Source of the DNA: Sedimentibacter sp. MB31-C6
Lineage (GTDB): Bacteria; Bacillota; Clostridia; Tissierellales; Sedimentibacteraceae
Direction: 5' to 3'
Assembly (NCBI RefSeq): GCF_035934735.1
Contig: NZ_CP142396.1
Span: 2,666,001 to 2,730,000 of the forward strand
Length of the DNA stretch: 64,000 bases
Shown here: piece by piece, positions 50,086-50,314 of the stretch
Layout of the letters: every line of letters begins with the position of its first letter
Position numbering within the stretch: position 1 is the stretch's first letter
Made by a program: the position numbers and the translations under genes
Notes under the pieces: model-generated
What the model saw: only the letters and a program-made list of their open reading frames with translations
What the model was told of the DNA's origin: nothing
Database searches by the model: none

Positions 50086-50314
50086 AAGGAGAACTAAAGG
50101 ACTTATGCTGTTTTATTGCTTGCCCTAACCCGATGAATTCGAGCGAAAGCGAAGAACGAATCGAAGGTAGGTCAGCCGCAACGAGTACCAAATTTTCACG
50201 AACGAAAGTGAGTGAACAAATTTGTGTTACGAGACTGCGCTTGCTCTATAACTTATGGCAAGACTGTTTGAGCTAACAGTATAAACAGGCTTTTTTTAAA
50301 CTAAATAATAAAGT
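50086..50314 (+). other. 16S-tRNA-Ala spacer of operon 1
   Basis: Holds the 3' strand of the 16S processing stem (CTTATGCTGTTTTATTG, 50102-50118), a diverged double-hairpin repeat (50124-50238) and an AT-rich stretch before tRNA-Ala. Confidence 0.75.
50124..50238 (+). repeat. Double-hairpin repeat, diverged copy in the 16S-23S spacer
   Basis: CCTAACCCGAT pairs with ATCGAAGGTAGG, while the stem bases in between differ from other copies on both strands. Hairpin 2 is ACCAAATTTTCAC with a matching 3' strand, ending GAGACTGC. A strong example of conserved structure with changed sequence. Confidence 0.75.

What the first reader, a model, noticed from the sequence alone, without database searches (positions are those of the whole stretch)
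50124..50238. Compensatory changes show the repeat is selected as RNA structure
This copy keeps CCTAACC and GGTAGG but replaces the adjacent stem by CGAT/ATCG, and rebuilds hairpin 2 as CCAAATTT/AAATTTG. Likewise 53897-54007 uses CCCATTTTTCAGA/TCTGTAAAAATGG and 63609-63716 uses TTTCTTC/GAAGAAGAAA. Paired changes in three independent copies argue for function rather than recent duplication.
Basis: seen in the sequence. Interest (0 to 1): 0.65.

Follow-up and report, generated by a model that had tools for sequence, protein, structure and literature searches.

The report
Structured mobile repeat in rRNA operons

Summary
Copy 50119-50239 and the two others named do rebuild their stems by paired changes. 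In 109 diverse copies, 14 of 38 pairs covary significantly against a phylogeny-aware null, and sliding the partners by 1-3 columns abolishes the signal. There is no Rfam match.

The interpretation needs changing. This is a dispersed, probably mobile ~118-nt element: 33 copies in this genome and up to 57 in other Sedimentibacter. Paralogous rRNA operons show filled and empty sites: GAGAA|element|CGACAT versus GAGAACGACAT. Insertion is precise, with no target-site duplication. Copies sit in sense, flush with terminator T-runs, tRNA, 5S and 23S ends, or stop codons. The first flanking base outside the element pairs with an internal base in 140 of 146 copies (50 by shuffling). This looks like guide-target pairing.

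Among copies that share one insertion site, stem changes break pairs (12 of 13) and none is compensated. Structure is therefore kept while the element spreads, not at each locus. Function for the host is not shown. The mobilising enzyme is unknown; neither Y1 transposase nor RVT_1 reverse transcriptase tracks the element.

The parts
50119..50239 (+). The copy named in the finding: full element after the 16S rRNA, starting directly at the end of the 16S processing stalk
   Evidence: cmsearch 104 bits; sequence
50118..50118 (+). Flanking base G (-1) outside the element, complementary to internal base 50176
   Evidence: -1:58 pairing in 140/146 copies
50174..50176 (+). Internal guide AGC (model positions 56-58) pairing with 50121 (T), 50119 (C) and 50118 (G)
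   Evidence: guide/flank table
48156..48275 (+). Copy 11 nt upstream of mature 16S
   Evidence: empty and filled 16S leaders in sister species
50460..50577 (+). Copy upstream of 23S; this site is empty in three other rRNA operons of the same genome
53892..54008 (+).
54179..54212 (+). Decayed remnant (second-hairpin 3' half) directly after 5S rRNA
   Evidence: sequence
54600..54717 (+). First of three tandem copies, starting directly after the tRNA-Met CCA end
54719..54836 (+). Second tandem copy
54838..54955 (+). Third tandem copy, before tRNA-Glu
56464..56583 (+). Copy upstream of 16S in the second operon
58552..58669 (+). Copy upstream of 23S in the second operon
61968..62084 (+). Copy after 23S in the second operon
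62254..62371 (+). Copy flush with the 5S rRNA 3' end
62760..62877 (+). First of three tandem copies after tRNA-Met in the second operon
62879..62996 (+). Second tandem copy in the second operon
62998..63115 (+). Third tandem copy in the second operon
63606..63717 (+).
   Evidence: 57 bits
8226..8257 (-). Fragment of hairpin 1 (3' half) flush with the stop codon of ORF 8256-8885(-)
   Evidence: inverted repeat hits I1-I8, sequence

Best explanation
The repeat is a non-coding mobile element of about 118 nt with two hairpins. SHOWN: (1) hairpin 1 (CCUA-A-CC...GG-UAGG, one bulged A and two bulged bases) and hairpin 2 are each tipped by a tandem G.A/A.G pair, one or two base pairs and usually a GNRA-like tetraloop, and the fold is held by covariation. 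(2) The element is dispersed and its insertion is precise, without target-site duplication. (3) Insertions lie in sense, usually flush with the 3' end of something: a terminator T-run, the 3' end of a tRNA, 5S or 23S, or a stop codon. (4) The last base before the element pairs with internal position 58, while positions 1 and 3 pair with 57 and 56; this guide changes between otherwise near-identical copies together with the target. INFERRED: the folded strand (single-stranded DNA at the replication fork, or the transcript) is the substrate of a trans-acting enzyme. The internal guide and the terminal GCA/UGC pairing hold the two ends together, and the first outside base is chosen by complementarity, as guide sequences do in IS200/IS605 elements. 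Selection keeps the fold because only foldable copies move; settled copies then decay.
For: Covariation: 14/38 pairs E<0.05, and three top pairs not in the model (1-57, 19-39, 64-112) extend the same stems; 38/41 pairs with double changes, slid controls flat. Copy number: 33 here, 4-57 in 22 of 24 same-genus genomes, none in the other two, also in several families of the order. Precise empty/filled sites without duplication: 23S 5' flank in five operons of this genome; 16S leader empty 5 of 6 in G021, 1 of 2 in G018; L10 leader and rplJ stop codon filled in some species and empty in others. Insertion after terminators of an L10 leader, a Moco riboswitch and a proS T-box; upstream fold energy -8.6 vs -4.0 kcal/mol in the TATG class; 27 copies start within 1 nt of a stop codon. 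Guide-flank pairing 140/146 vs at most 72 in 20,000 shuffles; guide switches 47 times on the core tree. No in-place compensation: 0 of 13.
Against: No mobilising gene was found and no larger autonomous copy with these ends was seen. Movement was inferred from comparisons, not observed; precise loss by recombination could produce some of the empty sites. A 4-nt repeat after the 3' end occurs in 12 of 101 copies (p=4e-4), most simply remnants of tandem copies. The in-place test rests on 22 changes in 7 sites, all younger than most between-site comparisons. Some positions (16S leader, 23S trailer, L10 leader) are occupied in several species, which could reflect host benefit.
Confidence: 0.72

Rival explanations
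1. Host-functional RNA element: the hairpins are processing or regulatory sites (for example RNase III substrates or protein-binding sites) for pre-rRNA, pre-tRNA and ribosomal-protein mRNAs, maintained by selection at each site.
For: In this genome most of 33 copies lie in rRNA/tRNA operons and all 30 copies examined are sense to the downstream gene; others lie at rplA-rplJ, rplS-rbgA and proS. Copies bracket rRNAs next to the processing stalks.
Against: Three of five operons lack the 23S-leader copy; sister operons lack the 16S-leader copy. Copies also sit by hcp and transporter genes and beside unrelated genes elsewhere. Many remnants; in-place stem changes are not compensated.
Confidence: 0.15
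2. A derivative of a group IIC intron or similar retroelement: it inserts by reverse splicing downstream of terminator stem-loops, guided by exon-intron pairing.
For: IIC introns insert at intrinsic terminators (PMC4424553), in sense and without target-site duplication (the last two from general knowledge), as here; guide-target pairing resembles IBS/EBS.
Against: No group II intron match in Rfam scans; 118 nt has no room for the ribozyme core; no RVT_1 gene in G018 (99% complete, 52 copies), G009 or G016. The stop-codon class has no upstream stem.
Confidence: 0.1
3. A non-autonomous IS200/IS605-type or REP-like element moved as single-stranded DNA by a Y1 (HUH) transposase.
For: No target-site duplication, subterminal hairpins and guide sequences complementary to the cleavage site are the hallmarks (guides: PMC8266576); the right guide GCA lies 5' of hairpin 2 and pairs with the right end UGC. 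Y1 genes occur in many of these genomes.
Against: No Y1 gene in G035 (99% complete, 26 copies), G016 (97%, 15 copies) or G017. This genome's Y1 genes are more simply explained by a separate GTAG-REP family. Only one target base lies outside the element, and the left guide is 3' of hairpin 1.
Confidence: 0.2
4. Covariation is an artefact of aligning to a structure model or of shared ancestry.
For: The alignments were fitted to the model.
Against: The null preserves the tree and substitution counts; pairs outside the model were recovered; slid partners lose the signal; the flank base -1, which was not aligned to the model, covaries with 58.
Confidence: 0.03

Closest known systems
Mobile/repeat sequence candidates (MRSC), for example MRSC-65-2 (PMC11109978)
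   Same: Structured motif in many copies per genome, judged selfish, depicted as RNA but possibly acting as DNA
   Different: MRSC-65-2 has a conserved UYCCGG repeat, and the class is marked by inconsistent orientation; here the orientation is largely sense, insertion is at RNA or gene 3' ends, and the flank pairs with the element
Stem-loop (SLS) repeat families of bacterial genomes, including NEMIS, ERIC and BOX types (PMC2267715; the named examples from general knowledge)
   Same: Dispersed intergenic repeats with a common fold
   Different: Classical MITE-like families have inverted ends and target-site duplications (general knowledge); this one has neither
REP/REPIN elements with RAYT (TnpA-REP) transposases
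   Same: Non-autonomous hairpin repeats thought to move as single strands, with a guide-like tetranucleotide
   Different: REPs are 20-40 bp with GTAG at the foot; this element is 118 nt, two-hairpin, and the GTAG in GGTAGG is inside a stem
IS200/IS605 ends (IS608, ISDra2)
   Same: Insertion without duplication; guide-target complementarity decides the site
   Different: Target tetra/pentanucleotide lies wholly outside; a Y1 transposase is required
Group IIC introns
   Same: Insertion directly after terminators
   Different: No ribozyme core, no reverse transcriptase, several times shorter
Bacillaceae-1 RNA motif (RF01690)
   Same: Candidate structured RNA, reported near rRNA operons in Bacillaceae (from memory; family listed)
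   Different: No Rfam match to it here

Membership tests
Dispersed structured mobile repeat (MRSC/SLS type) | Many copies per genome with one conserved fold | tested here: met
Dispersed structured mobile repeat (MRSC/SLS type) | Presence/absence at equivalent sites | tested here: met
MITE | Target-site duplication and terminal inverted repeats | tested here: not met
   Empty/filled junctions show no duplication; ends TATGnCC and GACTGCG are not inverted copies
REP/RAYT element | GTAG tetranucleotide 5' to a 20-40 bp palindrome | tested here: not met
   Anatomy
REP/RAYT or IS200/IS605 derivative | Y1 transposase in the genome | tested here: not met
   Absent from G016 and G035, which carry 15 and 26 copies; past presence cannot be excluded
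IS200/IS605 derivative | Insertion without duplication | tested here: met
IS200/IS605 derivative | Internal guide complementary to the target | tested here: met
   only one target base lies outside
IS200/IS605 derivative | Cleavage and strand transfer of the folded single strand by Y1 transposase | not testable with these tools
   needs protein
Group IIC intron | Group II ribozyme core | tested here: not met
   No Rfam match
Group IIC intron | Insertion downstream of intrinsic terminators in sense | tested here: met
   TATG class; the stop-codon class does not fit
Group IIC intron | Reverse transcriptase available in the genome | tested here: not met
   No RVT_1 in G009, G016, G018
Any described Rfam family | Score above the gathering threshold | tested here: not met

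The most novel reading that the evidence does not exclude
A new kind of mobile element of about 118 nt that is targeted to 3' ends of transcripts: it recognises terminators, mature tRNA/rRNA ends and stop-codon ends, inserts in sense without duplication, and uses a rapidly re-programmable internal guide that matches the target base. This would imply an unknown enzyme working on a folded single strand, possibly on RNA ends.
Probability: 0.22. Interest if true: 0.85.

Novelty: new variant of a known kind. Interest (0 to 1): 0.6.

Why it matters
It is an undescribed structured element (no Rfam match) that fills rRNA, tRNA and ribosomal-protein operons of a common group of anaerobes and sits directly behind riboswitch, T-box and L10-leader terminators, where it could change readthrough. 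It also gives a natural series of guide-target pairs for studying how a very small element picks its site. Methodologically it warns that strong covariation among repeat copies can record selection on propagation, not host function.

Tried and rejected
Rfam at gathering and at E<=10: only rRNA, tRNA and leader RNAs above threshold. Target-site duplication: only 12/101 copies carry the tetramer again, and paralogous junctions show none. Association restricted to translation genes: true for most copies here, but not for hcp and transporter contexts or for sister genomes. Autonomous partner: isolated hairpins in ~0.8 Mb of loci gave no larger element (many 'orphans' are cross-matches between the two similar hairpins). 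Y1 transposase and RVT_1 as mobilisers: presence does not track copies. Viral contigs, phages and plasmids: no match. Pairing of -2 with 59: none.

Full report
CHECK OF THE OBSERVATION. The window lies in a 3.02-Mb genome of two contigs. A scan of named genomes with the hairpin-1 pattern returns Sedimentibacter species (S. acidaminivorans, S. hydroxybenzoicus, S. saalensis), Tissierella, Peptoniphilus, Aedoeadaptatus and related anaerobes; that the window itself is Sedimentibacter is inferred from this. Counted on the structural alignment against copy 54838-54955, the copies at 50119, 53892 and 63606 carry 9, 5 and 4 pairs changed on both sides and still paired, against 2.0, 0.59 and 0.95 expected from random placement (p <= 5e-5, 1e-4 and 0.006). 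The third copy is decayed in its second hairpin.

ANATOMY. The consensus is ~118 nt: TATGnCCTAACCC-stem-loop-stem-GnnGGTAGGTCAAACGCAACGA-stem-loop-stem-GTGAATGAGACTGCG. Hairpin 1 has one bulged A on its 5' side and a two-base bulge on its 3' side. In many copies both hairpins are tipped by CGA/GAG (tandem G.A pairs), one or two base pairs and a GNRA-like tetraloop; a second hairpin-1 tip (CAGA...TCTG) replaces it elsewhere. The base of hairpin 2 also contains CGA/GAG, where C-G changes to U-A in concert (model pair 64-112).

STATISTICS. A covariance model from 18 copies finds 33 copies in this genome, 4-57 copies in 22 of 24 other genomes of the genus (none in the other two), and copies in other families of the order. 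In a class-wide survey 14 of 393 genomes had matches: 12 of the same order (own included), 2 of one other family. On 109 copies filtered at 95% identity, a test modelled on R-scape (FastTree tree, parsimony substitutions replayed at random positions, APC-corrected G statistic, 100 replicates) gives 14 of 38 model pairs at E<0.05. The strongest pairs outside the model, 19-39, 1-57 and 64-112 (E 0.011, 0.011, 0.021), extend the same stems. On 141 distinct rows 95.3% of cells pair, 38 of 41 pairs show double changes, and sliding partners by 1-3 columns drops pairing to 32-45%. G-U cells outnumber A-C cells 143 to 62, which points to the sense strand as the folded one.

IT IS AN INSERTED ELEMENT. 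Paralogous rRNA operons give direct comparisons. The 23S leader reads GGAAAATAAAAGAGAA|GATGTCC...ACTGCG|CGACATTAATTG in two operons and GGAAAATAAAGAGAACGACATTAATTG in three. In G021 the 16S leader reads CTATCTTGAG|CAAGAATATAAAAC in five operons and carries an element after CTTGAG in one; G018 has one of each. The rplA-rplJ leader is filled in G000, G024, G005 and others and empty in G002, G012 and G015, with the junction inside the T-run of the L10 leader terminator; the rplJ stop codon is filled in G005, G014, G018 and G021. None of these junctions shows a clear target-site duplication; 3' junctions can differ by a base. Copies in tandem and decayed remnants are common.

WHERE IT SITS. In this genome all 30 copies examined are sense to the downstream gene. 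In others, with reliable flanking genes, 42 intergenic regions are sense to both neighbours and 10 antisense to both. Two classes of junction stand out. The TATG class often follows a stem and T-run; examples are the L10 leader, a Moco riboswitch and the proS T-box. The GATG class follows A: 27 copies begin within 1 nt of a stop codon, others directly after tRNA ends or the 23S end. The 5S 3' end carries TATG-class copies.

GUIDE. The base before the element (-1), which lies outside it according to the empty sites, is complementary to internal base 58 in 140 of 146 non-tandem copies (50 on average, 72 at most in 20,000 shuffles). Bases 1 and 3 pair with 57 and 56 in 140 and 141; -2 and 59 show nothing. 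Combinations include T|TATG-AAA, A|GATG-ATT, G|TATG-AAC, A|GAAG-TTT, G|CTTG-AGC and T|CATG-AGA. Copies with >=90% identical cores differ in guide in 71 of 158 pairs, and the guide changes 47 times on the core tree (73 if random).

WHAT THE COMPENSATION MEANS. In copies sharing one insertion site (both flanks alike; seven sites), 22 changes were found: 9 in loops, 13 in stems, of which 12 break a pair and one is kept as G-U. Neutral expectation is 35% kept; none is compensated. Between different insertions of similar divergence 150 doubly changed pairs are kept, 71 singly changed and 110 broken. Selection on the fold thus acts on the spreading lineage. The sample is small and the shared sites are young.

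MECHANISM. Shown: fold, dispersal, precise insertion without duplication, 3'-end preference, guide-flank pairing. Inferred: a trans-acting enzyme recognises the folded strand, uses positions 55-58 to choose the left junction and the GCA/UGC pairing to hold the right end. Y1 transposases are missing from G016, G017 and G035, and RVT_1 from G009, G016 and G018, although all carry copies. Group IIC introns share the terminator preference (PMC4424553) and IS200/IS605 elements share guide-target complementarity (PMC8266576), but membership in either is not met. The closest described kind is the mobile/repeat sequence candidate class (PMC11109978); keyword searches found no description of this family.

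Noticed in passing
window 8103-8143, 10761-10801, 47619-47659, 50649-50689, 58449-58489, 58725-58765: A separate GTAG-headed palindromic REP family (GTAGGGGACGCATTGTATGCGTCCC), with 74 forward and 58 reverse matches in this genome, which also has three Y1 transposases of RAYT size.
   Followed up: partly
window 48398-48619 and 56706-56927: The 16S rRNA genes are about 1798 nt long, with a near-5' insertion that contains three copies of a 36-nt repeat.
   Followed up: no
window 52023-52102 and 60099-60178: The 23S genes (~3118 nt) contain a duplicated 38-nt block, probably in an expansion or intervening sequence.
   Followed up: no
L049, L061, L109, L125, L157: A subfamily starting TATGATTTACCC, without the bulged A, is inserted at the same place inside hairpin 2 of another copy in several species: nested insertion.
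   Followed up: partly
L263:4555-4671 versus L262:4442-4557 and L264:1700-1815: In one genome three rRNA operons share hairpin 1 and flanks, but one has a wholly different hairpin 2, suggesting recombination between copies.
   Followed up: no
L234, L246 (G405) and L236 (G330): Good copies occur in one family outside the order, possibly by horizontal transfer.
   Followed up: no
L012:4776-4893, L013:5294-5532, L014:4558-4642: The element sits directly behind terminators of a Moco riboswitch, an L10 leader and a proS T-box, where it may alter attenuation.
   Followed up: partly
L095:225-337, L053:6866-6979, L070:1023-1136: GC-rich versions in Peptoniphilus, Aedoeadaptatus and Family XIII keep hairpin 1 but have a different GC-rich hairpin 2.
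   Followed up: no
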